From a virus: DNA of 25,600 nt. The stretch covers positions 1-25,600 of the IMG/VR virus record IMGVR_UViG_3300021963_000592; one strand, 5' to 3'. The notes under the pieces were generated by a model. It was not told the origin of the DNA, made no database searches, and saw only the letters and a list, made by a program, of their open reading frames with translations. The translations under genes and the position numbers were made by a program. This document shows, in pieces, positions 4,341 to 20,973 of this stretch; the stretch's first letter is position 1, and the number at the start of each line of letters is the position of its first letter.

Positions 4341-4345
4341 GGAGA
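4341..4345 (+). promoter_or_regulatory. Ribosome binding site of the ssDNA-binding protein gene
   Basis: GGAGA lies 5 nt before ATG 4351. An in-frame TTG at 4339 overlaps this site and so cannot be the start it serves. Confidence 0.6.
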
Positions 4346-4350
4346 AAATT

Positions 4351-6222: not shown

Positions 6223-6419
6223 ATGTTAATTCTGTAACCATTAGAGAAGCCAGTAATGGCTTTGTTGTTGAGCATGTAGCTGAGGGTGAATTCGATAAGT
6301 ATCAAACTGAGTTTGTTGCTTTAGATGTTGACGAAGCTTTACTAATTGCTAGAGATTTATTTGTGCATTATGATGCTGCTGACATGTCGCATCTAGTAGA
6401 TACACCAATTGGTAGATAA
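6219..6419 (+). CDS. Small hypothetical protein
   Basis: A 66-aa acidic ORF coupled to the gene before it (ATGA) and overlapping the HNH gene by 11 nt. A beta-hairpin-like start (NVNSVTIREASNGFVVEHVAEGEF) is followed by a helix (VDEALLIARDLFVHY). I recognise no family. It lacks cysteines and membrane segments. Confidence 0.6.
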   Translation: MNVNSVTIREASNGFVVEHVAEGEFDKYQTEFVALDVDEALLIARDLFVHYDAADMSHLVDTPIGR

Positions 6420-6789
6420 GAAAAGAAACGGAGGCGAGTGGACTGACTCTAGGTTCAGAAGCTTTGTCACCTCAGCCCTTCGTGCTGCGTCTAGGCGTTG
6501 GCCTCCTAAGTACAAGGCTCTTAAAGAAGCCTTCGTTGGTAGGAAGACTAACAAGAAGACAGGCAAGTTGGCAATGCATTACAAATGTGCCAAATGTAAG
6601 AAGCACTTTGTTGCTGCTGATGTACAGGTAGATCATATACTGCCAGTAGTATCACCAACAGAGGGCTTTGTTAGTTGGGACTTGTTCATTGATCGTATCT
6701 TCTGTGAGATAGAAAATCTACAGGTGATGTGTAAACCCTGTCACAAAGTGAAGACAGAACTAGAGAAGGTAGAAAGGAAAAAGAAATGA
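6409..6789 (+). CDS. Phage HNH endonuclease
   Basis: A 126-aa HNH nuclease. The N-terminal part (WTDSRFRSFVTSALRAASRRWPPK, about residues 11-34) is typical of a recurrent phage HNH family. The nuclease core has a zinc pair Cys60/Cys63 (CAKC), the HNH dyad VDHILPVV (Asp75-His76), FVSWDLFIDRIFCE, Asn103 (ENLQVMC) and the second zinc pair Cys108/Cys111 (CKPCH). It lies inside the operon with no intron or intein signs around it, so it is more likely a phage-metabolism enzyme (resolution or packaging cleavage) than a homing nuclease; that is inference. The only in-frame start before the conserved region is TTG 6409, with no clear ribosome binding site, so translation probably depends on coupling. 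Confidence 0.88.
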   Translation: MVDKKRNGGEWTDSRFRSFVTSALRAASRRWPPKYKALKEAFVGRKTNKKTGKLAMHYKCAKCKKHFVAADVQVDHILPVVSPTEGFVSWDLFIDRIFCEIENLQVMCKPCHKVKTELEKVERKKK

Positions 6790-7019
6790 ATGTAATGATG
6801 TTAGAAGAACATGAAGATGGCAGTGCCACCTATTCATTTGATTTAACAATGGAAGAGCGTGACATCTTACTGAGCTTAGGTATAATGACAGCCATCAAGA
6901 ATGGTATTAAAGAAGGAAAGCAATATGTCGGTAACACTGATCTGGGCTACACCAAATGCGGAACACCTGATAGCGTACATGGCGAGGGTGAGCAACCCAG
7001 AGAATCAGGACAACCCTGA
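6786..7019 (+). CDS. Small phage protein, 3' part overprinted by thyX
   Basis: A 77-aa ORF starting in an ATGA overlap with the HNH gene. The first 45 residues look like a real small phage protein: EEHEDGSATYSFDLTMEERDILLSLGI followed by a short helix. The pattern 'DGSA.y.fdlt.eE...l...Gi..a' recurs in phages, from memory. The last 95 nt lie inside thyX in another frame, so the C-terminal 31 residues (Gly/Glu/Pro-rich) are probably not conserved. Function unknown. Confidence 0.6.
   Translation: MNVMMLEEHEDGSATYSFDLTMEERDILLSLGIMTAIKNGIKEGKQYVGNTDLGYTKCGTPDSVHGEGEQPRESGQP
6914..6918 (+). promoter_or_regulatory. Ribosome binding site choosing the thyX start
   Basis: AGGAA lies 6 nt upstream of ATG 6925, while the upstream in-frame start at 6901 has no such site. 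This places the ThyX N-terminus at MSVTLIW. Confidence 0.55.
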
Positions 7020-7548
7020 GACAGCACCTAAGCTGCTGAAGTATTTGATGGACAACAAACACTGGAGTCCATTTGAGATGGTGAATGTGTGCATGGAAAT
7101 TACGACAACCCGTGACATTGCACGACAGATATTGCGACATCGTAGTTTTAGCTTCCAAGAATTCTCACAACGCTATGCCATTTCCTCACGCTATGAAACC
7201 AGTGAAGTGAGGATGCAGGATAACAAGAACAGACAGAACTCTATAGCCGTTCAGGACCGTGAATTGATGGCGGTGTGGGAAGAGCTACAGACAGATGTTT
7301 TGATAGCTGCTAAGCGGTCCTATGAAGCTGCATTGGGTATGGGCATTGCCAAGGAGGTGGCTCGAAAGGTGTTGCCTGAAGGACTAACCACCAGTAGAAT
7401 GTACATGAACGGTACACTGAGAAGTTGGATGCATTATGTTGATATTCGTTGCGACAAAGCAACACAGAAAGAACACCGTGATGTAGCAGATCAATGTAAG
7501 ACAGTGCTAACTAACTTGTTTCCATCTCTATTTGCACCTAGCAAGTAG
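6925..7548 (+). CDS. thyX: Flavin-dependent thymidylate synthase ThyX
   Basis: A 207-aa enzyme that makes dTMP from dUMP with methylene-tetrahydrofolate, FAD and NADPH. The ThyX signature RHR-x7-S is present as RHRSFSFQEFS followed by QRY (about residues 71-84). Other matching parts are ARVSNPENQ near the N-terminus, HWSPFEMVNVCMEI (substrate-binding His and Glu), ARQILRHRS, EVARKVLPEGLTTSRMYMNGTLRSWMHYVDIRC and the C-terminal helix. Length is normal for phage ThyX. It overlaps the upstream small gene by 95 nt and is followed by an intrinsic terminator. With the reductase downstream it forms the deoxynucleotide supply block. It is independent of a host ThyA and does not leave dihydrofolate behind. 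Confidence 0.95.
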   Translation: MSVTLIWATPNAEHLIAYMARVSNPENQDNPETAPKLLKYLMDNKHWSPFEMVNVCMEITTTRDIARQILRHRSFSFQEFSQRYAISSRYETSEVRMQDNKNRQNSIAVQDRELMAVWEELQTDVLIAAKRSYEAALGMGIAKEVARKVLPEGLTTSRMYMNGTLRSWMHYVDIRCDKATQKEHRDVADQCKTVLTNLFPSLFAPSK

Positions 7549-7580
7549 AAGTCAACTGAGGTATAACTACCTTTCCTTTC

Positions 7581-7603
7581 GGGAGCTTTTGCTCCCATTT
7601 TTT
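7581..7603 (+). terminator. Rho-independent terminator between thyX and nrdA
   Basis: GGGAGC (7581-7586), loop TTTT, GCTCCC (7591-7596), then ATTTTTT (7597-7603). The 6-bp GC-rich stem with a tetraloop and a U-tract is the clearest terminator in the window. It lies in the longest gene-free gap (7549-7625) and divides the + strand arm into two units. Confidence 0.88.
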
Positions 7604-7625
7604 CCACTACAACAAAGGTATTTAT

Positions 7626-9407
7626 ATGGCAAAGTTTAAGGTCGCTATTGACCTGTCTCGGGATAGTTTGTTCGATGAACTAGGCATCCAGAGATTGAGA
7701 GAGAGTTATATGAAAGATGAAGAGGCTAGTCCTCAAGAAAGATTTGCATATGTTTCGGAATCGTTTGCGTCCAATCAAGAACATGCTCAAAGACTATACG
7801 ACTACAGCAGCAAGCATTGGCTTAGCTACTCTACACCTATCCTATCTTTTGGTCGCTCTAAGCGTGGCCTCCCTATTAGCTGTTTCCTTAATTACATGGA
7901 TGATAGTGCAGAAGGCTTGGTTGATAACCTATCAGAAACTAACTGGCTATCCATGTATGGTGGTGGTGTTGGGGTTCATGTTGGTATTCGTAATGGCGAT
8001 GATAAGTCTACTGGTGTTATGCCCCACCTTAAGATCTATGATGCTAGTTCATTGGCCTACCGCCAAGGACGCACAAGGCGGGGTAGCTATGCTGCCTACC
8101 TAGACATCCATCACCCTGACATCATCCAGTTCTTAGAGATGCGTAAGCCTACAGGTGATCAGAATGTACGCACATTAAACCTGCATCACGGCATCAACAT
8201 CACTGATGAATTCATGACCATCATTGAGAAGGCCATGAAAGACCCTGACTTTGATGACAGCTTTCAGCTAAAGAATCCTTCTAATGGTGAGGTGGTAGAG
8301 ACAGTGTCTGCTAAATATCTGTGGCAGAAAATACTGGACCTACGCATGCAGACAGGTGAGCCATACCTAGTGTTCATTGACACAGCTAACAAGGCTATGC
8401 CTAAGTGGTTGAGTGACAAAGGCTTGAAGATTAATGGCAGCAATCTGTGTACAGAAATCTTCCTACCAACTAACGAGAAACGAACAGCAGTGTGCTGCTT
8501 GTCTTCCCTCAACTTAGAATACTATGATGACTGGAAAGATGACAAGCGATTCATTTTAGATGTTATGGAAATGCTAGACAATGTCTTGCAATACTTCATC
8601 GACAAAGCACCATCAACAATTGCTAGGGCTAAGTACAGCGCAATGATGGAGCGAAGCATTGGTGTAGGTACTCTAGGCTTTCATGCATTCTTACAGAAGA
8701 AAGGTGTAGCCATCGATGGTGTGATGGCTAAGAGCTTTAACAATGAAATCTTTAAGCACATTCATTCTTCGTGTTTAATTGCTGACTCTATCTTGGAGCA
8801 GCAGCGTGGTAGTTGTATCGATGCTGGTCACGGAAATATTAGTAGAAGGTTTAGTCATCATACTGCTATTGCCCCTAACGCTAGTAGCAGTCTTATCATG
8901 GGCAATACTAGCCCTTCAGTCGAGCCGTACAGAGCGAATGTATTTCGCCAAGACACGCTCAGTGGGTCATTCGTTTACAAGAACAGGTTCTTGAAAGCAC
9001 AACTTGCTGCACTGGGTATGGACGATGATGACACATGGGCATCCATCATCAGCAACGAAGGATCTGTACAGCACCTAGACATCTCTGATCAATTGAAGGA
9101 AGTGTTTAAGACTGCTATGGAGATTGATCAGCGGTGGTTGGTTGAGCTTGCAGCAGACAGACAGAAATACATTGACCAAGGCCAGAGCATTAACCTGTTC
9201 TTCCATGCCAATGTATCCATTAAATATCTACATGCCATTCACTTCCTTGCTTGGAAGAGTGGACTGAAAAGCTTATACTATCTTCGTTCAGAGAAGGTGC
9301 GTAAAGCAGATAAGGTGGGTGCTCAGATTAAGCGTCAGCGTATTGAAGACGATATTGATTTGAAGCAGGTGGCAGAAGGTGAAACTTGTTTAGCATGTGA
9401 AGGTTGA
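7626..9407 (+). CDS. nrdA: Ribonucleoside-diphosphate reductase class I, large (alpha) subunit
   Basis: A 593-aa catalytic subunit that reduces ribonucleotides to deoxyribonucleotides. Active-site residues in family order are Cys86 (LPISCFLNYMDDS, E. coli Cys225), Asn273, Cys275 and Glu277 (SNLCTEIFLP), Cys291 (CCLSSLNL, E. coli Cys462) and the radical-relay pair Tyr551-Tyr552 (SLYYLRS). NASSSLIMGNTSPSVEPYRAN is also typical. The C-terminal shuttle cysteines are CLAC (588 and 591), closer together than in E. coli. The protein starts just before the catalytic barrel, so the N-terminal ATP-cone is absent and dATP feedback inhibition is probably lost. ATG 7626 has AAAGG 7 nt upstream. The gene follows the thyX terminator and is coupled to nrdB. 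Confidence 0.96.
   Translation: MAKFKVAIDLSRDSLFDELGIQRLRESYMKDEEASPQERFAYVSESFASNQEHAQRLYDYSSKHWLSYSTPILSFGRSKRGLPISCFLNYMDDSAEGLVDNLSETNWLSMYGGGVGVHVGIRNGDDKSTGVMPHLKIYDASSLAYRQGRTRRGSYAAYLDIHHPDIIQFLEMRKPTGDQNVRTLNLHHGINITDEFMTIIEKAMKDPDFDDSFQLKNPSNGEVVETVSAKYLWQKILDLRMQTGEPYLVFIDTANKAMPKWLSDKGLKINGSNLCTEIFLPTNEKRTAVCCLSSLNLEYYDDWKDDKRFILDVMEMLDNVLQYFIDKAPSTIARAKYSAMMERSIGVGTLGFHAFLQKKGVAIDGVMAKSFNNEIFKHIHSSCLIADSILEQQRGSCIDAGHGNISRRFSHHTAIAPNASSSLIMGNTSPSVEPYRANVFRQDTLSGSFVYKNRFLKAQLAALGMDDDDTWASIISNEGSVQHLDISDQLKEVFKTAMEIDQRWLVELAADRQKYIDQGQSINLFFHANVSIKYLHAIHFLAWKSGLKSLYYLRSEKVRKADKVGAQIKRQRIEDDIDLKQVAEGETCLACEG
9399..9403 (+). promoter_or_regulatory. Ribosome binding site of nrdB
   Basis: GAAGG lies 5 nt before ATG 9409. 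It overlaps the end of nrdA and makes ATG 9409 a better start than GTG 9397. Confidence 0.55.
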
Positions 9408-9408
9408 T

Positions 9409-10368
9409 ATGGTAAAAACTAAATTAGATATTACGCAAGAGCGTACAACATTCAAACCCTTTAAATATCCTTGGGCATATGATGCTTGGCTGCAGCATGA
9501 GCAGAGCCATTGGCTTCATACAGAAGTGCCTATGTCTGAGGACGTTAAAGACTACAAGAAGCTGAGCAAACAGGAGCAAGAGTTTCTAACAAAGATCTTG
9601 CGCTTCTTTGTGCAGGGGGACTTGGACATTGGCAGTGGCTACCATGACCACTACATCCCAGTGTTCAAGCAACCTGAGGTGAGGATGATGATGAGTGGCT
9701 TTGCAGGTAGGGAAGCCCTGCATGTAGCAGCCTATGCTCACCTCATTGAAACCTTGGGCTTGCCTGAGTCTACCTACAATGAGTTTCTCCAGTACAAAGA
9801 GATGGTGGAGAAGCATGACTACATTAACAATCTTAGTGCAGCACCAATGGCTGAGAAGATTGCAGCCATCTCTGCCTTTGGGGAGGGCATGCAGCTATTC
9901 TCCAGCTTTGTAATGTTGTTAAACTTTGCAAGGAATGGTAAACTCAAAGGACTAGGTCAGATCATTGCTTGGTCCATAGTGGATGAGACTCAGCATGCTG
10001 AAGGTATGATAAAGGTGTATCGTGAATATGTTAAGAACAACAAAGATGAGAGCACTTCGGATCGTATCAAGGAAATTGCAAATCAAATGGTGGGTCTGGA
10101 GGATCAGTTTGTGGATCTGGCTTTTTCAATGGTTGAAGTCGAGAAGCTTACGAAAGAAGAAGTGAAGCAATACATCCGCTACATTGCAGATCGTAGACTC
10201 ATCTCTATGGGGATGAAGGGTATCTATAAGATCAAGAAGAACCCTTTGCCTTGGGTGGATGGTATGCTAGGTGTTAGCCACACCAACTTCTTTGAGCAGC
10301 GTGTAACAGACTACAGCAAGGGTGCTACCACTGGTACTTGGGATGATGTATGGGGTAAAGCAGCATGA
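9409..10368 (+). CDS. nrdB: Ribonucleoside-diphosphate reductase class I, small (beta) subunit
   Basis: A 319-aa diiron/tyrosyl-radical subunit that starts the radical used by NrdA. Metal ligands, counted from ATG 9409: an Asp in QGDLD (71 or 73), Glu102 and His105 (REALH), Glu159 (FGEGMQ), Glu193 and His196 (DETQH). Tyr109, four residues after His105, is at the radical tyrosine position (E. coli Tyr122), so a tyrosyl-radical class Ia-type enzyme is expected. The C-terminal end TTGTWDDVW is probably the peptide that docks on NrdA. The gene starts 2 nt after the nrdA stop and overlaps the next gene in an ATGA. No glutaredoxin or thioredoxin gene is visible nearby. Confidence 0.96.
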   Translation: MVKTKLDITQERTTFKPFKYPWAYDAWLQHEQSHWLHTEVPMSEDVKDYKKLSKQEQEFLTKILRFFVQGDLDIGSGYHDHYIPVFKQPEVRMMMSGFAGREALHVAAYAHLIETLGLPESTYNEFLQYKEMVEKHDYINNLSAAPMAEKIAAISAFGEGMQLFSSFVMLLNFARNGKLKGLGQIIAWSIVDETQHAEGMIKVYREYVKNNKDESTSDRIKEIANQMVGLEDQFVDLAFSMVEVEKLTKEEVKQYIRYIADRRLISMGMKGIYKIKKNPLPWVDGMLGVSHTNFFEQRVTDYSKGATTGTWDDVWGKAA

Positions 10369-10571
10369 TTGTTGTAGAGCTAAGGCAAGGCATAGGAATT
10401 GATATTGAATTCAATGACACCATCTGTCACATCATAGATGATGGTGGACCACAGGATAAGTTGTTCTCTTATAGTGGTATACTAATCAAGTTGCCTTTTC
10501 TTAGTATCTATATTGGTGAGTTTGAAGAGATAGGTGAACTCATCAAGGGCGATAAACCTACAGGGAAATAA
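10365..10571 (+). CDS. Hypothetical phage protein
   Basis: A 68-aa ORF coupled to nrdB by ATGA. It is predicted to be mainly beta strand (MIVVELRQGIGIDIEFN, CHIIDDGG, KLFSYSGILIKLPFLSIYIGEF). Its position after nrdB might suggest a redox partner, but no CxxC motif is present, so it is not a glutaredoxin. Function unknown. Confidence 0.6.
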   Translation: MIVVELRQGIGIDIEFNDTICHIIDDGGPQDKLFSYSGILIKLPFLSIYIGEFEEIGELIKGDKPTGK

Positions 10572-10572
10572 C

Positions 10573-10764
10573 ATGCAAGTCAAGACAGAACGATCTGCAC
10601 CTTTGCGTATTCAATTTGAACAGGGCTATAAAGCTTTCAGGCATGGATGGTTGGTCAATCAATATGAACCATCATCTGTGGCAGGTAAGGAGTGGCAACG
10701 AGGATTTGATCGTGGCTACTTTGATAACATTGAAAGACTAGATGGCTACCAAGCGGTTCGATAA
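10573..10764 (+). CDS. Rmf/CrpP-like small protein (possible)
   Basis: A 63-aa basic protein from ATG 10573, which follows GGGAA by 7 nt; an in-frame start at 10534 lies inside the previous gene and is less likely. The core is FEQGYKAFRHGW...YEP...GKEWQRGFDRGY (about residues 15-50). The order GY.A...G ... Y ... W..G(F/W) resembles ribosome modulation factor (Rmf, 55 aa), a small protein that dimerises and silences 70S ribosomes, and the Rmf/CrpP-like domains found in phages. The match covers only a few positions, so ribosome binding is an inference. It overlaps the next gene by 23 nt. Confidence 0.55.
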   Translation: MQVKTERSAPLRIQFEQGYKAFRHGWLVNQYEPSSVAGKEWQRGFDRGYFDNIERLDGYQAVR

Positions 10765-11185
10765 AGAACTCCACGATACCTACGACAAGTTTGGAAGAGA
10801 TATAGTTAAGAGCTATGTCTCTTCTTTTTGGGATATGGAAGCTAGAGATAATCCTGATAGGTATGGGATTGATCTGCATCTGTATAAAGACGACTTGTTG
10901 GTGGGATATGCTGAGGTAGAAGTCAGACTGTCATGGAAAACTGTAGAGTTTCCCTATGAAGATTTAAATGTTCCTAACAGAAAAAAGAAGCTTCTAACAC
11001 AGGACATGTTAACATACTTCTTTTCTGTTAATAAGGATGGAACAGCCTTGTTCCATTGCGAAGCTGCTGCTGTGTTAGCTTCAGAAGTTAAAGAGTCTAG
11101 AAATAAATATGTCTACCAAGGTGAACTCTTCTACAAGGTTCCTCTTGATAGACTTTCTTATGTTGTATTACCTACGGCTAGCTAA
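10742..11185 (+). CDS. PD-(D/E)XK nuclease-like hypothetical protein
   Basis: A 147-aa ORF, the last gene of the + strand arm. The segment RYGIDLHLY (Asp44), then YAEVEVRLSWK (Glu58, Glu60, Arg62), then an aromatic/Pro stretch and PNRKKK (about residues 78-83) resembles the core of small restriction-endonuclease-fold proteins: an Asp, 13-16 residues, then E-x-(E/K) on the next strand. The lysine usual in motif III is not at its standard place, so activity is uncertain. I recall similar uncharacterised phage proteins with 'YG.D......EVEVR..W...RK'. The 3' end overlaps the convergent ejection-protein gene by 18 nt. Confidence 0.6.
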   Translation: MATKRFDKELHDTYDKFGRDIVKSYVSSFWDMEARDNPDRYGIDLHLYKDDLLVGYAEVEVRLSWKTVEFPYEDLNVPNRKKKLLTQDMLTYFFSVNKDGTALFHCEAAAVLASEVKESRNKYVYQGELFYKVPLDRLSYVVLPTAS

Positions 11186-14100
11186 GCCACCCTTATTAAA
11201 TTTCCTAGTAAGGTTTCGGACATTATCAATAGCATTGATTTGTTTCTTCAAATCATTACCATACTTAAACTTACCTAGTTCACTATTAAGGTCTGTTAAT
11301 AGTTTAGCTTTTTCAGTTGATCCGTTAGCTTTCAAAACTTCTGCTGTATTCTCTAGAAGTTTACCAGTATAAACTCTTCTTCTTTGACCTGCTAAGTTTC
11401 CACTAGCAACAGTTTTTGGATACTCTTCAGCTTGAATAACTTCTGATACATCTCTTAAGAAATTATGGTAACGCTGACCAGTACCTTCTTTAGTTGAGGT
11501 GATAGTTCCATACTCTAAAGCATTATTAAAGTAGTCTTTAATATTTTTATATGCTTGGTTAGCAGCAATGATGCGCTCTTTCTCTGTTGTCTTTGCGTTA
11601 GTAAACACACTATTCAACTCAAATAAGTTAAGAGCAATCTTTTTACTTTTATCTGTTCTCTCAGTGAAGCCAACACTTTGTGTTCTTCCTTTAGAGAACA
11701 TGGGAGTCTTTCCTTCTTCAACCAAAGGAACACCCGCCATAGCTTTCTTAGCTTCCTCAGCAGCAGATAACACTTCAAGCTGTCTGCCTGTTGCTTTGCC
11801 TTGTGGCCTTAGTTTATCTGTCTCAGTAATCATGTCCTCTGCTTCTTTAAAGCTGTTAGAACGGGAAAGAGAAACAGGTCTAACTACTCTTTCAGATCCA
11901 TTGATTGATCTGGCAATGATATTAAAGTCTTCAAGGCCATATTGTTTGCTGGACATAGGAACCCTGCTAAACATATAGTCAGCATAAGGTATCTTTGTAT
12001 AAACAAGTTTCTCTGGGTTAGTTCCACCAAAGGCTTCGTTTTCAAAGTTTAAATTAATATCTCTAGTGAAGGATGTACCACCAACATGCAATTCACTATG
12101 TGCATTACCATGAAACTGGGGATCATCAAAGCCAGTCTTCCATCTTAAAGATGGTCCTTCTTTATATGAAGATCTCCCATGAAATAATTTAATAGGAGGA
12201 ACATCTTTATATTCTTCTCTAAGTTTATTGAGTCTGCCTTGATATTGCTTAGCCATTTCAGCAGCTTGCTGCATATCTTCTGCACTCTTTAAATTAATTT
12301 CTCTGCCTGTTGTATATCTAAAGTCACCCTGCACTACAGCCATAACATCTTCTGCATCAGGCAGTTTAGAAACTTCGGGCATAGCAATTAAAGAATCAAA
12401 AGCATCTTGTCTATCTGTTCTGATCTTAGCAAGCATAGCCTTTCTAGTTTCAGTACTGCTTATACCATTACCTACTTGTGCATTTAAGTTACCTTCGGGT
12501 ATCTTTGAGAAAGATACTCTTTTCTGTACCAATGATTTAGTAGGTGGTGTGGGTGTGCTTCCTAGTTCAATAGGATAACCTTCTTCATCATATTCAACTT
12601 CTTTAATTGTAAACTCTGGATCTTTATCAGGAGTAGCTTTAGGATTTGTTGGCTCAGCATTCCAGAAATCATCTTCTTTAGTTGTTGGTTTAAATGAAGC
12701 CTCTGCTTCATCAACTATCTTCTCCATGTCAACATCTAATGCTGCTGGCTTCTGTGCTGCTTCAAGGTCAGCTAGTTTATTAGCCCCCTCTACATCCATA
12801 GGAATATCTTTTGCTGGTTTAGAGACAGAAGGACCATACTTGTTCTTATCGTATGGTATCTTAGCCATAGCAGATGCAGCACCTTCTTTAACTACAGGCT
12901 TAGTAGGAATTGCTTTAGCTGTTAAGTCTGCTTTATTTAAAGCACTCTCTACAACATTGTTAATTTCATTGGCAACAAGAGCTTCTGGATTCTTAACCTT
13001 TCTAATAAGGTCAAGCATTCCTTCAGTGCCTGTAGCAGCAGCTTTAGCTCCAGCTCTGAATACCTTACCCGCCACTATACCACCAGTAGCAAACTGAAGA
13101 TCTTTAATCTTAGCTGCATACTCAGGTACTCTCATGTAGTCATTAGCTTCTTCTAGTGTCTTACCTTCACCACGCTCAGCAGCATATCTATTATTAATAA
13201 TCTTACGAGTGTCTTCAGGAAGTTTATTAAACTTCATCTTATACACACGATTTAAATCTTCCTGCATAAACTTAGCATCAGTGAGCTGTCTGGCTACAGG
13301 AAGAATATCTTTAACTACATTCTCAATGGCTTTCTTCTGCTCAATCTCAGGCAGGGCTTGATAGCGAGGGCTTAGCATTGCCCTTTGAATGGTGGCAATA
13401 ACTAATGGGTTAGCTTCTTGAACATAAGCCCTGTCATATTCTTTATCACCTGATGGTTGACCAAAGAGTTTATATGCTTCAATACCTAGATAGACCAGTT
13501 CAGTTTCTTCTGGTGTCTTCTCTGGTGTAATACGAATACCAACTAAGTTGTTAAAGAATTCACCTTCTTTATATATTGGTCCTTGTCTTACACGGGGAAT
13601 AGTTTCAGGTAGTTGTTCTTTCAACACAGGAAGTTTAGATTGAATTCTATTTCCCGCTGCTTCTAATATTCTATCTACTGGCTTCTCTGATTTAAGTACA
13701 TTAGGATCTCTAGCAACAGAGCCACCCTCACGAATCAAATCAACAAGGTTGAAGATGTCTTTAACAATGAATGGTGATACAAACCTAGCACCAAAGTCAC
13801 CAGCCACTTTACCCATCTTATCAGCCCATTTCTCAACATCTCTCTCCGAAGAAAGAGCAGAGATGAGTTGATCCATGAATTGGTTCTGTGTACCTGCTGG
13901 CATTTTCATACCAATGACAGCTTCAAAGGCATCACCAGTCTTTGCAGACAGGCCACGCTTATGCTTCACTGATACATCAGCCATAGCTAACAAAGGACCA
14001 ATAGGGAAAATACCACGCATATCCACTGTAGTACCGTCACTTCTTTTCCACAGGTTCCATTCAACATCTTGATTGTTCTCACGATAGTCAATGGCAGAAA

Positions 14101-16429
14101 GCAACGCTGCTGTACCTACAATACCTTTAGCTGTATTCTCTTGCCCTTTTCTAATGAGAGAAGCACCTGTCTCATCCCCATTAGCTAACATCTTAGAGCC
14201 TCTAAGAATGTCTTCTGCACCAGAGATACCACCTAATGGGCTATAACGATACTGGAATGCAATGGCATTAGTCATGAAGCGAGGGAAGGTAACAAACAAG
14301 CTACCACCGGGAACCTCTGCAGCCTTAACAAAGTAATTACCTACAGCCTCAGCACCACCCTCAAATGTCTTGATGCCACCCTTAGGTATCTTAGGTGTAT
14401 AAGAGAAGGTAGCCTTCAGTGTATCGTCTGCTGCTTCTTTAAGGATGTCAGCAGGAATAACTTTACCATCAGCAATAAGCTGATACATATCTAAGCCAAC
14501 ACCCTTAAGCTTCTTTTCCACTGAGTTAGCAAAGATGGCCTTTCTAAAGAAAGCGTCCTGTGCCACATTCAATGCATTAGCCATACGAGCAACTTTAGAC
14601 AAGTCTGTGTCTGTCTCTTGCATAGCAGAGAGGATGTTACTTCTAATGGATGGGTTGTGCTTTAGCAACTCATCTGTCACTTCAGAGGCTAAGTCATTCT
14701 TACGCAAGTAACCCCATGTACCAAAGGCATTCTCAATGGTATCGCCAATGCTTGTCTTGAGTGTAGAAAACCTAGCACCTTTAGCTTCTGGTGATAGTGT
14801 CTTTCCTATGGTCATCAACGAGCCTTCAATAACAGAAGCTGCTGAGTTGAATGTCAAACCAATACCACTGCCCATAATGTTACGGACAGTAGTGCCAATA
14901 CCGCTGACAATGAGGGCTTTACTTTCTCTCTCAAGGCGGTTGAATGCACCACCTAAGTAACCAAGAGTGGATGTATATTCATCAGGCTTACCGTACAAAG
15001 CATCCACTTGCTTAGCAACATCTGGATCGATTTGACGCAGACGATTTAGAGCCTTAGAAGCTGTTGAATATTGCTGCATGATTTGAGCAGCTTGTGTAAC
15101 TGTCACTCTGTTAGCTTGGGCAAACTGTTCAGGACTCAATCCTTCTTTTCTAATGGCTTGCTCTAACAGGGTGTCATCAATAAGACCTTGGTCCATAGCA
15201 GAGAACACTTCAGCAATAGCTGTACTGGTCTTCTGTCCTGCCTTAACCTTGTAGGTAGGATCGTTCTCAATCACATTCAAAGCCACACGAATAGCTCTCT
15301 GTGATAAGTCTCTGCGGATGGCTGGCTCTACCAGAGCAGCAGCAGGAGAGATCTGATCTAACACCTTAGCACCCTCTTGCTTCATGAATTGCTCAGCAAG
15401 CATATCCATGTTCTCATCTACAGGAGATAATAAAGCTGTCTCTACTTTAGTAGGGGGAGCAGTTGGATCTATTGGTGCTTTTTCTTTAGACTTCTTAAGC
15501 AAGTCAGCAAGCTGTTCTTTACCAGATTTACCAAACTTAGTAACAGCAGCCTTAGCTTCTAAACCACCAAAGAGTCCACTAACAACACCACTTAAAATCA
15601 TTTGAGGTGCGCTAAGTTCTTCTGGTTCTTGACCGATAGTCTTAGCAACTTCTTGATCTAAGCGTTGGCTAACAACACTTTGGCCTACGCCTGATGCGGT
15701 TTCTAGCCCAGTAACTCCAGCTACTACTTTGCCTTTAGTTGGCTTGAGCATAGAAGCTATCTTACCTGTGGCGGCTGTACCAGCAGCAACTTGTGCAGCT
15801 TCTTTAGCTGCTGTAACTTTGATGGCTTGACTACCTAACTTACCAGCACCAAATCCTAAGTATGATAGTGGATCTGTTGCAATGGATGTTAGTGCATTCC
15901 AATAAGGAACTAAAGCATCAGCACTTCCATAGCCTTGACCACCGGGCTGGAATACGCTTCTTGTTTGTTTATATAGTTCTCTACCAAGCCCCAGTGTTTG
16001 AGCTTCTTCAGGCTTAGCATTTCTAATTCTATTCAGTTCAGGAAGAGCACCAGTGAAAGTGTTGAATTCAACATCCCTCATTGTTGCCATGTACTTCTTA
16101 ACAAAGTCTTCGTCTGTCTGTCCCTTTTCAGGTTCAATGTTACGACTAACTTTCATGTAGTCTTTAACTACAGAAAACAGTTCTGGATTTTTATACAGTT
16201 CTTCAAAAGGAATCTTCTCTTCAAGACCCTTCTTAGTTGCTTCCTCAATCTTTGCCTTACTAGGCATTGGAGCTTTAGTGATGATGGCAGGTTTCTCAGC
16301 AGCTTCCCGTTCAGCCGCCAACCCTCGAGCAGCCTCTCTTTCAATTTGCTGAAATGTTGGCTTTGGAATCAAATCATCAAACATCCCACCACTAGTTTTA
16401 GTGGGGATTAAGTCATCAAACATTCCCAT
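11168..16429 (-). CDS. Giant ejection-type internal virion protein, 1753 aa, with ART-like C-terminal region
   Basis: The largest gene here and the last of the late arm. By size and position it is probably an internal virion protein delivered with the DNA, comparable in role to T7 gp16; no direct homology to gp16 is visible. Residues 3-9 and 16-22 are two copies of MFDDLIP. Hydrophobic, membrane-like stretches occur near residues 200-225, 500-535 (LIVSGIGTTVRNIMGSGIG) and 700-730 (GGSLFVTFPRFMTNAIAF). A Pro/Thr/Lys-rich linker lies near 1200-1300. Residues 1413-1502 (IKLFHGRSS ... GGTSFTRD ... YGLEDF) resemble the order of ADP-ribosyltransferase fold motifs. The C-terminus is basic (KGGLASRR). 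No lytic transglycosylase motif was recognised. ATG 16429 follows the upstream stop directly, with GAGGA upstream. Confidence 0.85.
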   Translation of the reverse strand: MGMFDDLIPTKTSGGMFDDLIPKPTFQQIEREAARGLAAEREAAEKPAIITKAPMPSKAKIEEATKKGLEEKIPFEELYKNPELFSVVKDYMKVSRNIEPEKGQTDEDFVKKYMATMRDVEFNTFTGALPELNRIRNAKPEEAQTLGLGRELYKQTRSVFQPGGQGYGSADALVPYWNALTSIATDPLSYLGFGAGKLGSQAIKVTAAKEAAQVAAGTAATGKIASMLKPTKGKVVAGVTGLETASGVGQSVVSQRLDQEVAKTIGQEPEELSAPQMILSGVVSGLFGGLEAKAAVTKFGKSGKEQLADLLKKSKEKAPIDPTAPPTKVETALLSPVDENMDMLAEQFMKQEGAKVLDQISPAAALVEPAIRRDLSQRAIRVALNVIENDPTYKVKAGQKTSTAIAEVFSAMDQGLIDDTLLEQAIRKEGLSPEQFAQANRVTVTQAAQIMQQYSTASKALNRLRQIDPDVAKQVDALYGKPDEYTSTLGYLGGAFNRLERESKALIVSGIGTTVRNIMGSGIGLTFNSAASVIEGSLMTIGKTLSPEAKGARFSTLKTSIGDTIENAFGTWGYLRKNDLASEVTDELLKHNPSIRSNILSAMQETDTDLSKVARMANALNVAQDAFFRKAIFANSVEKKLKGVGLDMYQLIADGKVIPADILKEAADDTLKATFSYTPKIPKGGIKTFEGGAEAVGNYFVKAAEVPGGSLFVTFPRFMTNAIAFQYRYSPLGGISGAEDILRGSKMLANGDETGASLIRKGQENTAKGIVGTAALLSAIDYRENNQDVEWNLWKRSDGTTVDMRGIFPIGPLLAMADVSVKHKRGLSAKTGDAFEAVIGMKMPAGTQNQFMDQLISALSSERDVEKWADKMGKVAGDFGARFVSPFIVKDIFNLVDLIREGGSVARDPNVLKSEKPVDRILEAAGNRIQSKLPVLKEQLPETIPRVRQGPIYKEGEFFNNLVGIRITPEKTPEETELVYLGIEAYKLFGQPSGDKEYDRAYVQEANPLVIATIQRAMLSPRYQALPEIEQKKAIENVVKDILPVARQLTDAKFMQEDLNRVYKMKFNKLPEDTRKIINNRYAAERGEGKTLEEANDYMRVPEYAAKIKDLQFATGGIVAGKVFRAGAKAAATGTEGMLDLIRKVKNPEALVANEINNVVESALNKADLTAKAIPTKPVVKEGAASAMAKIPYDKNKYGPSVSKPAKDIPMDVEGANKLADLEAAQKPAALDVDMEKIVDEAEASFKPTTKEDDFWNAEPTNPKATPDKDPEFTIKEVEYDEEGYPIELGSTPTPPTKSLVQKRVSFSKIPEGNLNAQVGNGISSTETRKAMLAKIRTDRQDAFDSLIAMPEVSKLPDAEDVMAVVQGDFRYTTGREINLKSAEDMQQAAEMAKQYQGRLNKLREEYKDVPPIKLFHGRSSYKEGPSLRWKTGFDDPQFHGNAHSELHVGGTSFTRDINLNFENEAFGGTNPEKLVYTKIPYADYMFSRVPMSSKQYGLEDFNIIARSINGSERVVRPVSLSRSNSFKEAEDMITETDKLRPQGKATGRQLEVLSAAEEAKKAMAGVPLVEEGKTPMFSKGRTQSVGFTERTDKSKKIALNLFELNSVFTNAKTTEKERIIAANQAYKNIKDYFNNALEYGTITSTKEGTGQRYHNFLRDVSEVIQAEEYPKTVASGNLAGQRRRVYTGKLLENTAEVLKANGSTEKAKLLTDLNSELGKFKYGNDLKKQINAIDNVRNLTRKFNKGGLASRR

Positions 16430-17854
16430 TTAGAGATCCTCACCATATGTTTCTTTAAATCGTTTAGCCACATCCGCAGCAATTGCGCCTTGTTTTATAG
16501 CTGCATTTGCTTGTGCTCTAGCCGTGGCTTTATCAATAGGCGCAGTTGGCGCAGTTTCTGTAGAAGCTGGCTTAGCCATAGGCCCCCCCCTTGGTCTTGG
16601 TGTTTGTGCTGCTGGTGCTGCTGGAGCAGGTGCTGTACCACCATAGTTAATCTTAGGATTTACAGCATTACCATCTTGATCAAACTGAACACCAGCAGTC
16701 ATCAACGCATTCTTATGCATCTCAGATCTAGGCTTACCACCAACAGTCATCTCTTTAATCAACACTTCTCTACCAGCAGCGTAGCCTTTAGCTGCCTTGT
16801 CTGAGGAAGCTAAGTCTTTAACTTCAATGTTAGTTGTACCATCTTGATTAGATGTTGTAATGAAGCTACCGGGTGGTAGATAGTTAGACAAGGTAGATAC
16901 CATTGTCCTTGATGCAGCAGTGATGAGGTTGGCCTGAGAGATTTTATCAGCGTCTGTTTTTGTTTTATTATTTGGATTAGCAACAAGCTTCTGCCAGTTT
17001 CTAAGCTCAACTTCCATTGCAGCAGCTTCCTTAGGCTTACCTTCTTTTTGTAATTTGATAACACTATTAGCGTAATCAGCTTCAATCTCTTGTTGATTTT
17101 TCTTATGATATTTACCTAGCTCATCAAAGTAAGCAATTCTACCTAGCACTTTTGATGCTGCTAGTCTGTCTTCATCTGTACCTTCTTGATCAGCTTTTAA
17201 TGCTACGATCTTAGCGTTATCTGTAACCTTCTTCCAATCTTCTTTATCTTTAAGTTTGGAATAGTCAACTTCAAGAAGTGTTGGAAATGACTTAGCACCT
17301 TTAGCTGCACCAACATTGTACAGTTCTTCAGCACTAACACCATACTTAGCAGCAGCAGTTCTAATCTTATCTGCATTCTTACCATACACCATCTGATTGA
17401 AGATGCCATCTTGTTTGGTAGATGCAGCCTGTGTAAATTCAGCAGCATCCATCTTAGCCACCTTGCCATACTGCTCAACATATTGATTGAAGGTCATGCC
17501 CTCAGGAATTTTACCTGTTGCTTTAATGAATGACTTAGACAATCCTTCAAGCTTATCGGGATTTTTCTGTAGTTCTGTAGCAATAGCTTTTGCTGTAGGC
17601 AGGTCAGAAGCTAGAGCAATAAGCTCCTTCTCATCTAAAGTACCATCAGCAAATTTAAAAGAACGGAGAGAGCCAACTGTGTCTCTCATCTCTGTCTTCT
17701 TCTTCTCTGTCTCTTTTCTAAACTCTTGATAGTTATGGTACATGCTCTTAACACTCTCAGTAATCTGAGAAGCGTTAGTCTTTTCCATCTCTTCAATATA
17801 TTCGGTGGCTCCTTTAGCAGCACCACCAATAAAAGCACCTAGATTAAATCCCAT
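16430..17854 (-). CDS. Probable virion structural/internal protein, 474 aa
   Basis: Lies directly upstream of the giant ejection-type gene with no spacer, so the two are probably made together. The N-terminus (GFNLGAFIGGAAKGATEYI) is a small-residue amphipathic segment. Charged helices follow (about residues 20-60), then several helical blocks. A Pro/Ala linker with a run of eight G on the coding strand lies near residues 405-440, and the C-terminus is a charged helix (AIAADVAKRFKETYGEDL). Such helical proteins before a giant ejection protein are often part of the ejectosome or tail hub. No enzyme motif was found. GAGGAG lies 8 nt before ATG 17854, and the start overlaps the upstream stop by 1 nt (TAATG). 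Confidence 0.75.
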   Translation of the reverse strand: MGFNLGAFIGGAAKGATEYIEEMEKTNASQITESVKSMYHNYQEFRKETEKKKTEMRDTVGSLRSFKFADGTLDEKELIALASDLPTAKAIATELQKNPDKLEGLSKSFIKATGKIPEGMTFNQYVEQYGKVAKMDAAEFTQAASTKQDGIFNQMVYGKNADKIRTAAAKYGVSAEELYNVGAAKGAKSFPTLLEVDYSKLKDKEDWKKVTDNAKIVALKADQEGTDEDRLAASKVLGRIAYFDELGKYHKKNQQEIEADYANSVIKLQKEGKPKEAAAMEVELRNWQKLVANPNNKTKTDADKISQANLITAASRTMVSTLSNYLPPGSFITTSNQDGTTNIEVKDLASSDKAAKGYAAGREVLIKEMTVGGKPRSEMHKNALMTAGVQFDQDGNAVNPKINYGGTAPAPAAPAAQTPRPRGGPMAKPASTETAPTAPIDKATARAQANAAIKQGAIAADVAKRFKETYGEDL

Positions 17855-18327
17855 TATTCTTCTCCTCTAGCCATCAAACCCCTGCGCTCAAGCTTAGCTT
17901 CAGGGTTCTTTTGTACTGCAGTCTTAGCTTCTTTAATTAGTTCTCTAATAACAGAAGGACTAACTTTCTTTTCTTTATCTACATCTTCAGCAGTCATGTG
18001 ATAAGGAACATCGTTAAGCTCAGCAAGTGTTTTAATAATTTCAGCAATCACTGGAGTAACTAAGAAGCCTGTGTCCACTGTGTGAAAGCCCTTCATAATA
18101 CTCATTGTAATCATTCCATTCACAATGGAAGCAATTGGAATATTACCTTCCAACAGCTTCATCAAATCATCAATGGCTTCTGGATTGTTCATCTTCTCAG
18201 AATACATCTGAGCAACTTCATCTACAGTGACAAACTGAGGAGGCTGCTCCCAAGGAACACTGCCCGGCTCTACTGTCAAAGACATGCCGGGAATAGGTGC
18301 TGTCAGGTATGGATTAGGATCTGCCAT
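17854..18327 (-). CDS. Conserved phage protein in the virion module, unknown function
   Basis: A 157-aa ORF with GAGGAG 7 nt before ATG 18327. The N-terminus is proline-rich (NPYLTAPIPGMSLTVEPGSVPWEQPPQF, about residues 5-32). Then come NPEAIDDLMKLLEGNIPIASIVNGMITMSIMKGFHTVD (about 48-86), a hydrophobic helix TGFLVTPVIAEIIKTLAEL and a charged C-terminal half. The series 'PG.SLT.EPG..PWE.PP' followed by 'G.P...L...M...MeGkHTvD...lv.Pv..EfI' recurs in marine and freshwater phages as I remember it, usually annotated as hypothetical or structural. There is no signal peptide. Confidence 0.75.
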   Translation of the reverse strand: MADPNPYLTAPIPGMSLTVEPGSVPWEQPPQFVTVDEVAQMYSEKMNNPEAIDDLMKLLEGNIPIASIVNGMITMSIMKGFHTVDTGFLVTPVIAEIIKTLAELNDVPYHMTAEDVDKEKKVSPSVIRELIKEAKTAVQKNPEAKLERRGLMARGEE

Positions 18328-18529
18328 TCATCAACTCCTCTTTTTGTTTTCTAATAGCTGCTATGTAGTTGGATACTTTAGAGTATACATCTGAAGATGT
18401 CTTGTCTTCTTTGATAGGCTTATCCATAGTCTTAGATAACAAACCCTTACCTGCTTCTTTCTTGGGCTTAGACAGTTTGGCATTAGCCATACCATCCACC
18501 TTAGCATAATAGTTTTTAAAGTTCTTCAT
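18314..18529 (-). CDS. Small lysine-rich hypothetical protein
   Basis: A 71-aa basic ORF rich in Lys and Ser (KLSKPKKEAGKGLLSK, about residues 18-33) with a helical C-terminus (YSKVSNYIAAIRKQKEELMN). It overlaps the upstream structural gene by 4 nt and the downstream gene by 14 nt. It could be a minor virion component; no motif supports a specific role. Confidence 0.6.
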   Translation of the reverse strand: MKNFKNYYAKVDGMANAKLSKPKKEAGKGLLSKTMDKPIKEDKTSSDVYSKVSNYIAAIRKQKEELMNGRS

Positions 18530-20619
18530 ATTTTAATTCCTCCAGTTGCATAAGCAAGTGTGAGCTTTCCTAAGAAGTTACCAAAGTCAGAAGAGCTTTG
18601 TGCGTCTGCTTTAAGTGTAGCGGTTGCTATGGCAGCAGCAGCAGATATTTCAGAAGCAGCAATTGTTGTGGCCCTGTTAGCATCATTCTCAGCAGACTGC
18701 CAAGCATGTGTCACAGAGTCACGATATCTCTGTAGCTCATTGTTATATTCTGTCAATGTCATTTGCTGTGCAAGTTGAGCATTCTGTAAGTTAATGCTAT
18801 TGACAGCACCAGTATTAATTGTAGCAATCTCTCTTTGCCATTGAGCATTTGACTGGTCAATAACCAATCGTTGTTGTGCATTAAATTGCTCACGCTGGTT
18901 AGTCACTTCAGCATTAAACTTCTTAACAGAGTTTGCTTGGTCAGTTTTAAACTGTTCCATTGCGTTAGTCTGTGCAGAATTAAACTGACTAACTTGTGAA
19001 GTTAGAGAAGCAAAGAATTGATTTGTTTGATTTACGCTTGCAGCATTAAACTGTTTAGCAGCATTCTGAGCAGCAGTATCAGTTAATAAAGCTTGAGCTG
19101 TGAGCTGTGTCTTTAATATTGTTGCTTGCTGTTCATTTGACATGTTAGTCAAATCAATTTGCAAAGCAGCTTTAGCGTTTTCTACTGCAGCTATCTGTCT
19201 GTTATTTAAATTGGATGTTTCAAGAGTGGCTGTCTGTGCAAGCTCAGCCATGAAAGCGGCTTGTCTATTAGTTAGGTTGGCTAAGTCAACAGTTTGAGCA
19301 AGCCTAGAATTCTCCAAAGCAATCTGTTGATTGGAGTTGAAGTTCATGTTAGCAATGTCAGCTACACGGGCAGCATTAGTTACACGGGTCTGGAAGTTTT
19401 GATCAAACTCTTGACCCAAGAATGTAGCTCTTTGTTGTGCTGTGAGCACGGCAATCTGTTGTCTATTAGATAGGTTCTGTGTAGACATCTGCTGATATAT
19501 AGCAGCATCAGCAGAAGCAATGGGAAGAGCTTTCTCCATAGCAGCTTGTACCAAAGCAGCACCAGCCAAGCTAGAAGCACCTAAGCCCCTAGCAGCCATC
19601 TCTGCTGTAACAGCTCTCAATGCACCAGCAGCCCATGATGGGGGGTTGGTAGCATCAAAGTTTTTAGTAAGCTTAGCAAGCTGTCCCTGTACAGTCATGT
19701 CTTCAGTGACAGTTCCTTGTGCAGCTTCAGCCTTAGCAAGTTCTGTAGCTACTTTAGTCATGTCAACGGCAGAGCCAGCTATTGTTTCACCAGCACCTAA
19801 TGTCCTAGCAGTAGGGGCTACTACTTTTTGAGCAGCACCAATCTGTGCAGCTCTATCAGCCGCACCAGCAAGTGCTGTTGTATCTGCCTGTGCAGCTTCC
19901 ACTGTAGCTTCTGGAGATAGTGTACCTGTTGCTGGTGTAAATCCAGCTAACACTTTAGCCATCTCAGGATATGCTGTAGATGCTGTTACTTGTTCTGCTG
20001 TTAGCTTAGTAGGCATTGTTGCCAATGAAGCCGCAGCGGGAACAGTACCAGTAATTGTCTCTGCTTCTCCTGCTCTTGCTGTTGGAGAGATGTCTTGTGT
20101 AGCGCTATATACCACCTTCTCTGGTGTTATCTTAGAAGCTGCTGCTGCTTGAGGAACACCACCTACAGGTGTATATGTAACTTCACCACCACCAGTGACT
20201 CCACTTGTTACTTTTGCTGGCATTAGCGAGGCATAGGCGGTGCTCACTTCAGCATCTGTAAGACCATACACTGACTTAGCATGAGCAGCCAAAGCTACTG
20301 GATCTGTATCAGGTCTAGCTGTAAGTTCTTCACGAAGAGCTTGATTAATTTGCGCCTGTGTATAATCTTTAGTAGCTAAACTAGGATCAAACACTGTACC
20401 ACCAGCAACAAACTTAAGTACATCACCACCCTGAGCAAACTTACGCAGTCTAATCAATCCACCCCTAGCCATGCGCTCAGAAAACTTACCAGTGATGGCA
20501 GCATACTTAGCTTCCAAAGCAGGGGAAGATGCTATGAATTCATCAAAGCCCTGCATAGGACCATCGTAGCCCAGTTTCCTAGCTACAATTTCCTTTTGTT
20601 GTGCTGTAAAATCTTTCAT
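18526..20619 (-). CDS. Long helical-repeat virion protein, 697 aa
   Basis: A probable structural protein. The first 80 residues contain a Gly/Arg segment (ARGGLIRLRKFAQGG, about 51-65) of a type seen at the ends of many phage virion proteins. Residues 90-330 are Ala/Thr/Val-rich and low in complexity. From about 370 to 650 the protein is almost entirely Ala/Asn/Gln-rich helix with regular repeats: four 22-residue units (426-513) and seven 11-residue units (521-597). The end is YATGGIKI. The repeats predict a long hendecad-type coiled coil or amphipathic helix, suiting a fibre, tail-shaft or ejectosome tube part. No enzyme motif is present. Coupled by 4-nt overlaps to both neighbours. Confidence 0.75.
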   Translation of the reverse strand: MKDFTAQQKEIVARKLGYDGPMQGFDEFIASSPALEAKYAAITGKFSERMARGGLIRLRKFAQGGDVLKFVAGGTVFDPSLATKDYTQAQINQALREELTARPDTDPVALAAHAKSVYGLTDAEVSTAYASLMPAKVTSGVTGGGEVTYTPVGGVPQAAAASKITPEKVVYSATQDISPTARAGEAETITGTVPAAASLATMPTKLTAEQVTASTAYPEMAKVLAGFTPATGTLSPEATVEAAQADTTALAGAADRAAQIGAAQKVVAPTARTLGAGETIAGSAVDMTKVATELAKAEAAQGTVTEDMTVQGQLAKLTKNFDATNPPSWAAGALRAVTAEMAARGLGASSLAGAALVQAAMEKALPIASADAAIYQQMSTQNLSNRQQIAVLTAQQRATFLGQEFDQNFQTRVTNAARVADIANMNFNSNQQIALENSRLAQTVDLANLTNRQAAFMAELAQTATLETSNLNNRQIAAVENAKAALQIDLTNMSNEQQATILKTQLTAQALLTDTAAQNAAKQFNAASVNQTNQFFASLTSQVSQFNSAQTNAMEQFKTDQANSVKKFNAEVTNQREQFNAQQRLVIDQSNAQWQREIATINTGAVNSINLQNAQLAQQMTLTEYNNELQRYRDSVTHAWQSAENDANRATTIAASEISAAAAIATATLKADAQSSSDFGNFLGKLTLAYATGGIKI
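18829..19344 (-). repeat. Coding repeat: 22-residue units followed by 11-residue units
   Basis: Within the 697-aa protein, residues 426-513 form four 22-residue units of the type N-(L/F/M)-x-(N/S)-x-Q-(6 positions)... . Residues 521-597 form seven 11-residue units with the consensus xxQFNxxxxNx: AKQFNAASVNQ, TNQFFASLTSQ, VSQFNSAQTNA, MEQFKTDQANS, VKKFNAEVTNQ, REQFNAQQRLV and IDQSNAQWQRE. The nucleotide copies have diverged, so the repeat is old. Confidence 0.8.
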
Positions 20620-20924: not shown

Positions 20925-20942
20925 TATATACCTTTAAGCCTT

Positions 20943-20971: not shown

Positions 20972-20973
20972 TA

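What the first reader, a model, noticed from the sequence alone, without database searches (positions are those of the whole stretch)
11900..12220. ADP-ribosyltransferase-like region inside the giant ejection-type protein
Residues 1413-1502 show, in order, a strand ending in a basic dyad region (IKLFHGRSS), a strand with T/S-S-F-(T/S) (GGTSFTRD, 1450-1457) followed by a helix, an AFGG segment, then VYTKIPYADY and a candidate catalytic Glu (YGLEDF, Glu1500). This is the general layout of ART toxins (H/R ... STS ... E). A phage that injects an ADP-ribosyltransferase with its DNA would resemble in principle T4 Alt, but in an unrelated protein.
Basis: inference. Interest (0 to 1): 0.6.

Follow-up and report, generated by a model that had tools for sequence, protein, structure and literature searches.

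The report
Injected ADP-ribosylating enzyme with matching eraser
A group of uncultured aquatic phages appears to carry, on the tip of the large protein predicted to enter the host with the phage DNA, a previously unnamed enzyme domain that tags host molecules with ADP-ribose, and the same phages carry an early gene for a matching enzyme that would remove such tags.

Summary
Residues 1325-1565 of the 1753-aa protein (window 11735-12457, minus strand) form an ADP-ribosyltransferase (ART) fold. AlphaFold2 gives pLDDT 93, and the listed PDB matches are ART-fold proteins. His1417, Ser1453 and an E-x-E (Glu1529/Glu1531) are invariant in 89 distinct homologues. Glu1500 is conserved in only 7 of 89 and Arg1419 in 8.

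No Pfam, PHROG or NCBIfam profile recognises the domain, and it is absent from the cultured relatives tested. It sits on an HMO-2011-type ejection-like protein, where it is a swappable cassette: 11195-12888 is exchanged between phages while both flanks stay about 92-93% identical.

A DraG-type ADP-ribosylglycohydrolase (ARH, the eraser) occurs in 16 of 16 ART-bearing contigs above 50 kb and in 0 of 12 ART-less relatives. ART and ARH divergence correlate (r 0.72; partial 0.62-0.84, permutation p 0.0005), whereas ART barely follows the rest of its own polypeptide. The window stops short of where the ARH would lie.

Best reading: a virion-delivered mono-ART, possibly arginine-specific, with a matched eraser. 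Activity, delivery and target are untested. New variant of a known kind.

The parts
11168..16429 (-). 1753-aa ejection-type (internal virion-like) protein carrying the ART domain
   Evidence: Open reading frame; last gene of the late cluster, syntenic with the 1128-aa gp22 of HMO-2011; N-terminal ~1-1110 homologous to CRP-603 gp44 and the ctYwJ313 1219-aa protein
12905..16429 (-). Ejection backbone, residues 1-1175
   Evidence: 76-100% identical to L031/L019/L021 in all windows scored, ~30% to L002/L003
11195..12888 (-). Swapped effector cassette, residues ~1181-1745 (linker, ART domain, C-terminal helical part)
   Evidence: DNA match to L031 stops at 11195 and resumes at 12888; the same segment is ~93% identical to L002/L003-class contigs; protein identity switches at residue ~1176
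11735..12457 (-). ART domain, residues 1325-1565: N-terminal helical subdomain plus split-sheet ART core
   Evidence: AF2 pLDDT 93.2; fold matches; 89 distinct homologues
12179..12181 (-). His1417, strand 1; equivalent to the NAD-binding His of H-Y-E ARTs
   Evidence: 89/89 conserved; by the VIA-align start points, model residue 93 falls on ExoA 440 and diphtheria toxin 21 if no gap intervenes
12071..12073 (-). Ser1453, strand 2 (V-G-[AG]-x-S-F-T-x-D motif)
   Evidence: 89/89 conserved; strand 128-131 of the model
11837..11845 (-). Glu1529-x-Glu1531, candidate catalytic E-x-E on strand 5
   Evidence: Both 89/89; on strand 204-210 of the model; counting back from the alignment ends places ExoA Glu553 at model residue 205, or at the Glu1531 equivalent in the second model
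11930..11932 (-).
   Evidence: Glu in only 7/89 homologues
11171..11194 (-). C-terminal tail KGGLASRR, residues 1746-1753
   Evidence: Just outside the swapped cassette; same or similar ending in most homologues
16430..17854 (-). 474-aa protein, probable second ejection protein
   Evidence: Position and size only; no family hit. Inference
17854..18327 (-). 157-aa protein, probable third ejection protein
   Evidence: Position and size only; no convincing family hit. Inference

Best explanation
The region is a genuine ADP-ribosyltransferase domain of a new family with an H-S-ExE active site. It forms a C-terminal effector cassette on the large ejection protein of HMO-2011-type short-tailed phages. 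Proposed mechanism: the protein is packaged in the head and enters the host with the DNA. Its C-terminal part reaches the cytoplasm, as T7 gp16-C does, binds NAD+ with His1417 and Ser1453, and uses Glu1529/Glu1531 to transfer ADP-ribose to a host macromolecule, perhaps an arginine, before phage genes are expressed. The phage then makes a DraG-type ADP-ribosylglycohydrolase from its early region, which removes the mark and/or protects the late infected cell from the ART being made for packaging. Shown here: fold, invariant residues, purifying selection, cassette exchange, co-occurrence and co-divergence with the eraser. Inferred: virion location, delivery, catalysis, arginine specificity, the order of events and the target.
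For: FOLD: AF2 model of 1325-1565 from 54 sequences, pLDDT 93.2, pTM 0.89. All 50 VIA-align rows are ART-fold proteins, Z up to 5.3, rmsd ~4.5 A over 128 residues. A separate model of the core of a ~45%-identical member (L142) has only ART chains among the 50 best Foldseek hits (best E 0.017, prob up to 0.97) and VIA-align Z 7.2. ACTIVE SITE: His1417, Ser1453, Glu1529 and Glu1531 100% conserved in 89 distinct homologues. SELECTION: dN/dS about 0.08-0.11 against four close relatives. MODULE: 57 domains fused to the ejection protein, 7 as a separate downstream gene; cassette exchanged at 11195/12888 with conserved flanks; 60 full-length relatives show widespread reassortment. ERASER: PF03747 in 34/50 ART-bearing records and in all 16 above 50 kb, 0/12 ART-less HMO-2011-type isolates and relatives (ART-profile positive control 16/16); Asp-Asp, Thr-His and Asp-Ala-Asp motifs kept in 30/30. 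CO-DIVERGENCE: ART vs ARH distance r 0.72 in 30 genomes; partial r 0.62-0.84 (permutation p 0.0005) given helicase plus integrase, RNR or other ARH neighbours, while these neighbours have no positive partial correlation with ART. Macro domains 0/50.
Against: No sequence-level match to any known ART: no Pfam, PHROG, NCBIfam or PDB-sequence hit, and profile comparison with one polyvalent ART aligned only 10 columns. Fold scores are middling (Z 5-7; the tool warns that Z below 8 can be a common arrangement). No coordinates were available, so the His-Glu geometry was not measured. The usual strand-2 tyrosine is replaced by Ser. No virion proteomics or enzymology exists; 'ejection protein' rests on size, position and synteny. 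The window contig does not contain the ARH gene; its presence in this phage is inferred from near relatives. The distance-matrix tests ignore shared ancestry beyond the control genes, and the 16/16 vs 0/12 contrast compares related clades.
Confidence: 0.72

Rival explanations
1. The domain is an ART-fold NAD+ glycohydrolase or phosphorylase that depletes host NAD+ rather than modifying a macromolecule.
For: ART-fold NADases and NAD+-phosphorylases exist (PMC9503650), and the VIA-align list includes a RES toxin.
Against: The paired, co-diverging DraG-type hydrolase makes most sense if there is a macromolecular ADP-ribose conjugate; characterised family members act on such conjugates (PMC9503650). 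Macro domains, thought to prefer soluble derivatives in phages, are absent.
Confidence: 0.12
2. The fold is an ART but catalytically dead, kept as a structural or DNA/membrane-binding tip of the ejection protein.
For: Some ARTs lose activity (general knowledge); the domain is fused in most relatives to a presumed structural protein; the strand-2 Tyr is replaced by Ser.
Against: All four candidate catalytic positions are invariant in 89 sequences while neighbours such as 1419 and 1500 vary freely; the domain is a separate gene in 7 cases; isolates including HMO-2011 manage without it; strict partnership with an eraser.
Confidence: 0.08
3. The ARH is a counter-defence enzyme against host ARTs and is unrelated to the phage ART; the co-occurrence reflects shared ancestry.
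For: Host ADP-ribosylating anti-phage systems exist (CmdTAC, PMC11618068, title and abstract); ARH lies ~14 kb from the ART among early genes.
Against: ARH follows the swapped ART cassette even after controlling for helicase and for its own neighbours, and those neighbours do not follow ART.
Confidence: 0.15
4. ART and ARH are a weapon/immunity pair for competition between phages: the injected ART disables a host already occupied by a phage with a different ARH, while the matching ARH protects its own lineage.
For: Several cassette types on the same backbones and matched co-divergence resemble polymorphic effector/immunity pairs; an integrase-like gene sits beside ARH, with homologues in 30/30, so some of these phages may be temperate. 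The 2022 survey proposes such T-A roles for phage ARTs (PMC9503650).
Against: No direct evidence of superinfection effects; equally explained by timed writer-eraser control within one infection.
Confidence: 0.25

Closest known systems
T4 Alt (Alt/VIP2 family, R-S-E clade)
   Same: ART packaged in the head and injected with DNA to modify host proteins (PMC9503650, PMC5512222); strand-2 Ser and a strand-5 Glu
   Different: His instead of Arg on strand 1; fused to a podovirus ejection-type protein; paired with a DraG-type eraser; different phage type
ART-PolyVal / Tox-ART-HYD2 of polyvalent proteins (PF18760; RPP1 vRNAP)
   Same: ART domain inside a giant virion-associated protein of a marine short-tailed phage; strand-1 His in an LYHGT-like motif
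   Different: No profile match (none in five ART-bearing records, with RPP1 as positive control); S not Y on strand 2, E not D on strand 5; no second known enzymatic domain found in the same protein
Diphtheria toxin / exotoxin A / PARP group (H-Y-[EDQ] clade)
   Same: Best fold matches; strand-1 His falls on the catalytic His by alignment start points
   Different: Strand-2 Tyr replaced by Ser1453; E-x-E instead of a single Glu; phage ejection context; no sequence similarity detected
DraT-DraG and the ART-ARG pair of Aeromonas phages (PMC9503650)
   Same: ADP-ribosyl writer and DraG-type eraser in one genome
   Different: Genes are ~14 kb apart on opposite strands; the writer is fused to a presumed injected protein and is a different ART family (DRAT profile 0/16, without a positive control)
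T7 gp16 ejection protein
   Same: Very large last member of the ejection set; T7 gp16-C reaches the host cytoplasm, and its basic C-terminal residues are needed for infectivity (PMC8954989), cf. KGGLASRR
   Different: No family match to it was found; extra C-terminal ART cassette

Membership tests
ART superfamily | Split beta-sheet ART fold | tested here: met
   Two AF2 models; top structural matches are ARTs; scores are middling
ART superfamily | Basic residue (H/R) at the end of strand 1 | tested here: met
   His1417, 89/89, strand 89-94 of the model
ART superfamily | Catalytic acidic residue on strand 5 | tested here: met
   Glu1529 and Glu1531, 89/89, on strand 204-210; which of the two is catalytic is not settled, and distances were not measurable
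ART superfamily | NAD+-dependent transferase activity | not testable with these tools
   Needs enzymology
H-Y-[EDQ] clade | Tyrosine on strand 2 | tested here: not met
   Position is Ser1453 in 89/89; an aromatic occurs 9 residues on (Tyr/Phe1462, 79/89)
R-S-E clade (T4 Alt/VIP2, Mod) | Arginine on strand 1 | tested here: not met
   His1417 invariant; Arg1419 only 8/89
R-S-E clade (T4 Alt/VIP2, Mod) | Ser on strand 2 and Glu (E-x-E) on strand 5 | tested here: met
   Ser1453 and Glu1529-x-Glu1531 invariant
ART-PolyVal (PF18760) | Match to the family profile | tested here: not met
   No hit, none in five ART-bearing records; RPP1 vRNAP hit in the same kind of search
ART-PolyVal (PF18760) | Asp on strand 5 (H-Y-D) | tested here: not met
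   Glu, not Asp; definition from PMC5512222
Polyvalent proteins | Two or more biochemically unrelated effector domains in one virion protein | tested here: inconclusive
   Only the ART was recognised; no Pfam domain above cut-off elsewhere
Podovirus ejection (gp16-like) protein | Packaged in the virion and ejected with DNA | not testable with these tools
   Only position, size and synteny
DraG-type ADP-ribosylglycohydrolase (the partner, outside the window) | PF03747 match above cut-off plus Asp-Asp, Thr-His and Asp-x-Asp motifs | tested here: met
   34/50 records; motifs 30/30

The most novel reading that the evidence does not exclude
A new family of phage-injected ARTs with an H-S-ExE active site, delivered as a swappable warhead on a podovirus ejection protein and strictly paired with a co-evolving, early-expressed eraser. 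It would be either a timed on/off ADP-ribosylation switch across one infection cycle or an effector/immunity system for competition between abundant aquatic phages.
Probability: 0.6. Interest if true: 0.85.

Novelty: new variant of a known kind. Interest (0 to 1): 0.72.

Why it matters
A 2022 survey found ARTs in only about 3% of podoviruses and ADP-ribosylglycohydrolases to be rare in viruses (PMC9503650). HMO-2011-type phages are described as dominant and broadly distributed in the ocean (PMC9038755). That paper noted a DraG-like hydrolase in five metagenomic genomes and could not explain it; the ART found here supplies a likely substrate-maker. If correct, these phages fire an ADP-ribosylating warhead at the moment of DNA entry and carry the means to undo it. 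That would make the question of how such phages take over their hosts at time zero directly testable, and would offer natural matched and mismatched writer/eraser pairs for biochemistry.

Tried and rejected
Rejected: Glu1500 as catalytic residue and Arg1419 as part of a basic dyad. Rejected: membership of ART-PolyVal, the H-Y-E or the R-S-E clade as such (see membership test). Rejected as chance: weak Pfam/PHROG matches (Aegerolysin 0.2, PB1 0.12, phrog_37572 at 0.002-0.009, TFIIS_M 0.02-0.04) and a luciferase chain at E 0.57. Considered: assembly chimera as the cause of the mosaic protein. Unlikely, because L031 has both flanks of the window with a different cassette between the same two breakpoints, and many independent contigs show reassortment. 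Led nowhere: genome-contig scans for relatives in bacteria (two scans, none confirmed), tblastn of the phage records (no isolate has the domain), hhalign with a single polyvalent ART, a search for more relatives of that ART (2 loci), Macro domain (0/50). PF03496 and DRAT profiles gave 0/16 but had no positive control, so another ART partner for the ARH is not excluded. One search failed on a wrong frame.

Full report
OBSERVATION. The ORF at 11168-16429 (minus) encodes 1753 aa, and the quoted peptides are at the stated residues. Pfam, PHROGs and NCBIfam give no significant match, so this is not an annotated ART.

HOMOLOGUES. Searches of IMG/VR gave loci L002-L111 and L114-L188. 184 open frames contain the domain, 89 of them distinct over the aligned length. 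None was confirmed in genomes of 84,980 bacterial/archaeal species or in 50,697 phage records by tblastn. Over the 89, the invariant residues include H1417, G1418, E1446, S1453, F1454, T1455, D1457, Y1497, R1517, E1529, E1531, E1536 and K1539; Arg1419 is R in 8 and Glu1500 is E in 7. dN/dS for close pairs is 0.026/0.30, 0.038/0.454, 0.029/0.26 and 0.057/0.509, about 0.08-0.11.

FOLD. AF2 on 1325-1565 with 54 sequences: pLDDT 93.2, pTM 0.89. Foldseek's best PDB hit was exotoxin A domain III at E 0.31. The VIA-align second look put only ART-fold entries in its 50 rows: exotoxin A 5.3, diphtheria toxin 5.2, cholix, ParT, RES, tankyrase. BFVD contained one homologue, A0A6J5N986, 39% identical, named only for a polyvalent-associated domain. 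As a replicate, the core of L142 (about 47% identical to the window) was modelled from 47 sequences, pLDDT 81. All 50 best Foldseek hits are ARTs, E down to 0.017, prob up to 0.97, and VIA-align reaches Z 7.2. In both models the alignment start points place the invariant His on the catalytic His of diphtheria toxin (21) and of exotoxin A (440). Counting back from the ends of the exotoxin A alignments places the catalytic Glu at Glu1529 or Glu1531. The catalytic residue numbers of these proteins are from general knowledge. This counting assumes no gap between the anchor and the residue, so I do not decide between the two Glu. Z below 8 alone would not be compelling; the uniform identity of the hits, two models and the invariant residues make it so.

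ACTIVE-SITE TYPE. Per PMC9503650 the ART clades are H-H-h, H-Y-[EDQ] and R-S-E, and polyvalent ARTs are H-Y-D (PMC5512222). Here it is H-S-ExE, with Tyr/Phe1462 nine residues after Ser1453 in 79/89. It fits none of these exactly. An E-x-E on strand 5 is known from arginine-specific ARTs (general knowledge), and DraG-type hydrolases are classically arginine-ADP-ribose hydrolases (general knowledge); together these suggest an arginine target. This is inference.

CONTEXT. The window is HMO-2011-like. Its 697-aa structural protein is 40% identical to an HMO-2011 protein. The order late genes - large protein - convergent RNR region matches HMO-2011, whose counterpart gp22 is 1128 aa. Profile searches match the N-terminal part to the 1219-aa protein of ctYwJ313 (E 6e-81) and the 1153-aa protein of CRP-603 (E 1e-49), neither with the ART; the same profile did not hit an HMO-2011 ORF, so that link rests on synteny. 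In T7, gp16-C lies in the host cytoplasm and the basic C-terminus is needed (PMC8954989); the present protein ends KGGLASRR.

MODULE AND SWAPPING. Of the distinct domains whose gene start is seen, 57 are at the C-terminus of the ejection protein and 7 are separate downstream genes. Against L031 the window matches at DNA level from 3775 to 11195 and from 12888 to 21869 at ~92-93%, but not between. That interval matches L002/L003-class contigs at ~93%, whose large protein is only ~30% identical before residue ~1176. Among 60 full-length relatives many pairs have N-terminal identity >=85% with ART <55%, and many the reverse.

ERASER. PMC9038755 mentions a DraG-like ADP-ribosyl hydrolase in five metagenomic HMO-2011-type genomes, function unclear. 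PF03747 was therefore searched: 34 of 50 ART-bearing records and all 16 above 50 kb have it; Macro 0/50. Twelve ART-less HMO-2011-type or related phage records of 54-56 kb have neither ARH nor ART; the ART profile finds one copy in each of the 16. The metal and Thr-His motifs are kept in 30/30. In L203 the ARH lies upstream of an integrase-like gene and of the helicase-primase that corresponds to window 612-2225, which would put it about 1.6-2.5 kb beyond the window's left end. Contig IMGVR_UViG_3300020048_000818 (ART 96% to the window) carries both genes.

CO-DIVERGENCE. Distances in 30 genomes: ART-ARH r 0.72, ART-helicase 0.30. Partial ART-ARH given helicase is 0.71. With the ejection N-terminus (25 genomes) ART-ARH is 0.68 and ART-N-terminus 0.09 (p 0.06). 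Adding integrase, RNR, p198 or n279 leaves ART-ARH at 0.62-0.84 (p 0.0005, the floor of 2000 permutations), while each control's own partial correlation with ART is negative (first pass with polymerase). Relatedness is only partly removed by these controls.

INTERPRETATION. The evidence supports an ART writer carried by a presumed ejection protein and an ARH eraser matched to it. Which purpose the pair serves (timed modification, protection during late synthesis, or competition between phages) is open. No assay, virion or infection data exist.

Noticed in passing
L203:6990-7838 (-) and 30 homologous loci: DraG-type ADP-ribosylglycohydrolase in the early region of ART-bearing phages, off the left end of the window; co-diverges with the ART cassette.
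   Followed up: yes
window 11195-12888: Precise cassette exchange inside the gene, with backbone DNA conserved on both sides.
   Followed up: yes
window 11171-11194: C-terminal KGGLASRR shared by different cassettes; similar GG[LIV] motifs at residue 1116 (FATGGIV) and at the end of the 697-aa structural protein (YATGGIKI). Possible virion or processing signal.
   Followed up: no
window 12215-12457 (residues 1325-1405): Helical subdomain before the ART core with invariant R1340, G1368, R1371, E1377, Q1397; present with the core in all homologues aligned, role unknown.
   Followed up: no
L014:~7153-7167, L015:3639-3653, L016:4114-4128, L017:7166-7179: ART gene split from the ejection gene, with a probable TTG start preceded by a GGGGAT Shine-Dalgarno-like sequence; L064/L071/L089 use ATG.
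   Followed up: partly
L203:5893-6993 (-): Tyrosine-recombinase (integrase)-like gene next to the ARH; homologues in all 30 genomes compared, so some of these phages may be temperate.
   Followed up: no
window 6901-10368: ThyX-type thymidylate synthase and two-subunit ribonucleotide reductase, where HMO-2011 has an adenosylcobalamin-dependent enzyme.
   Followed up: no
window 23265-24296: 343-aa protein with a PHROG match to 'pectin lyase activity' over its last third, probably a tail-fibre-type protein.
   Followed up: no
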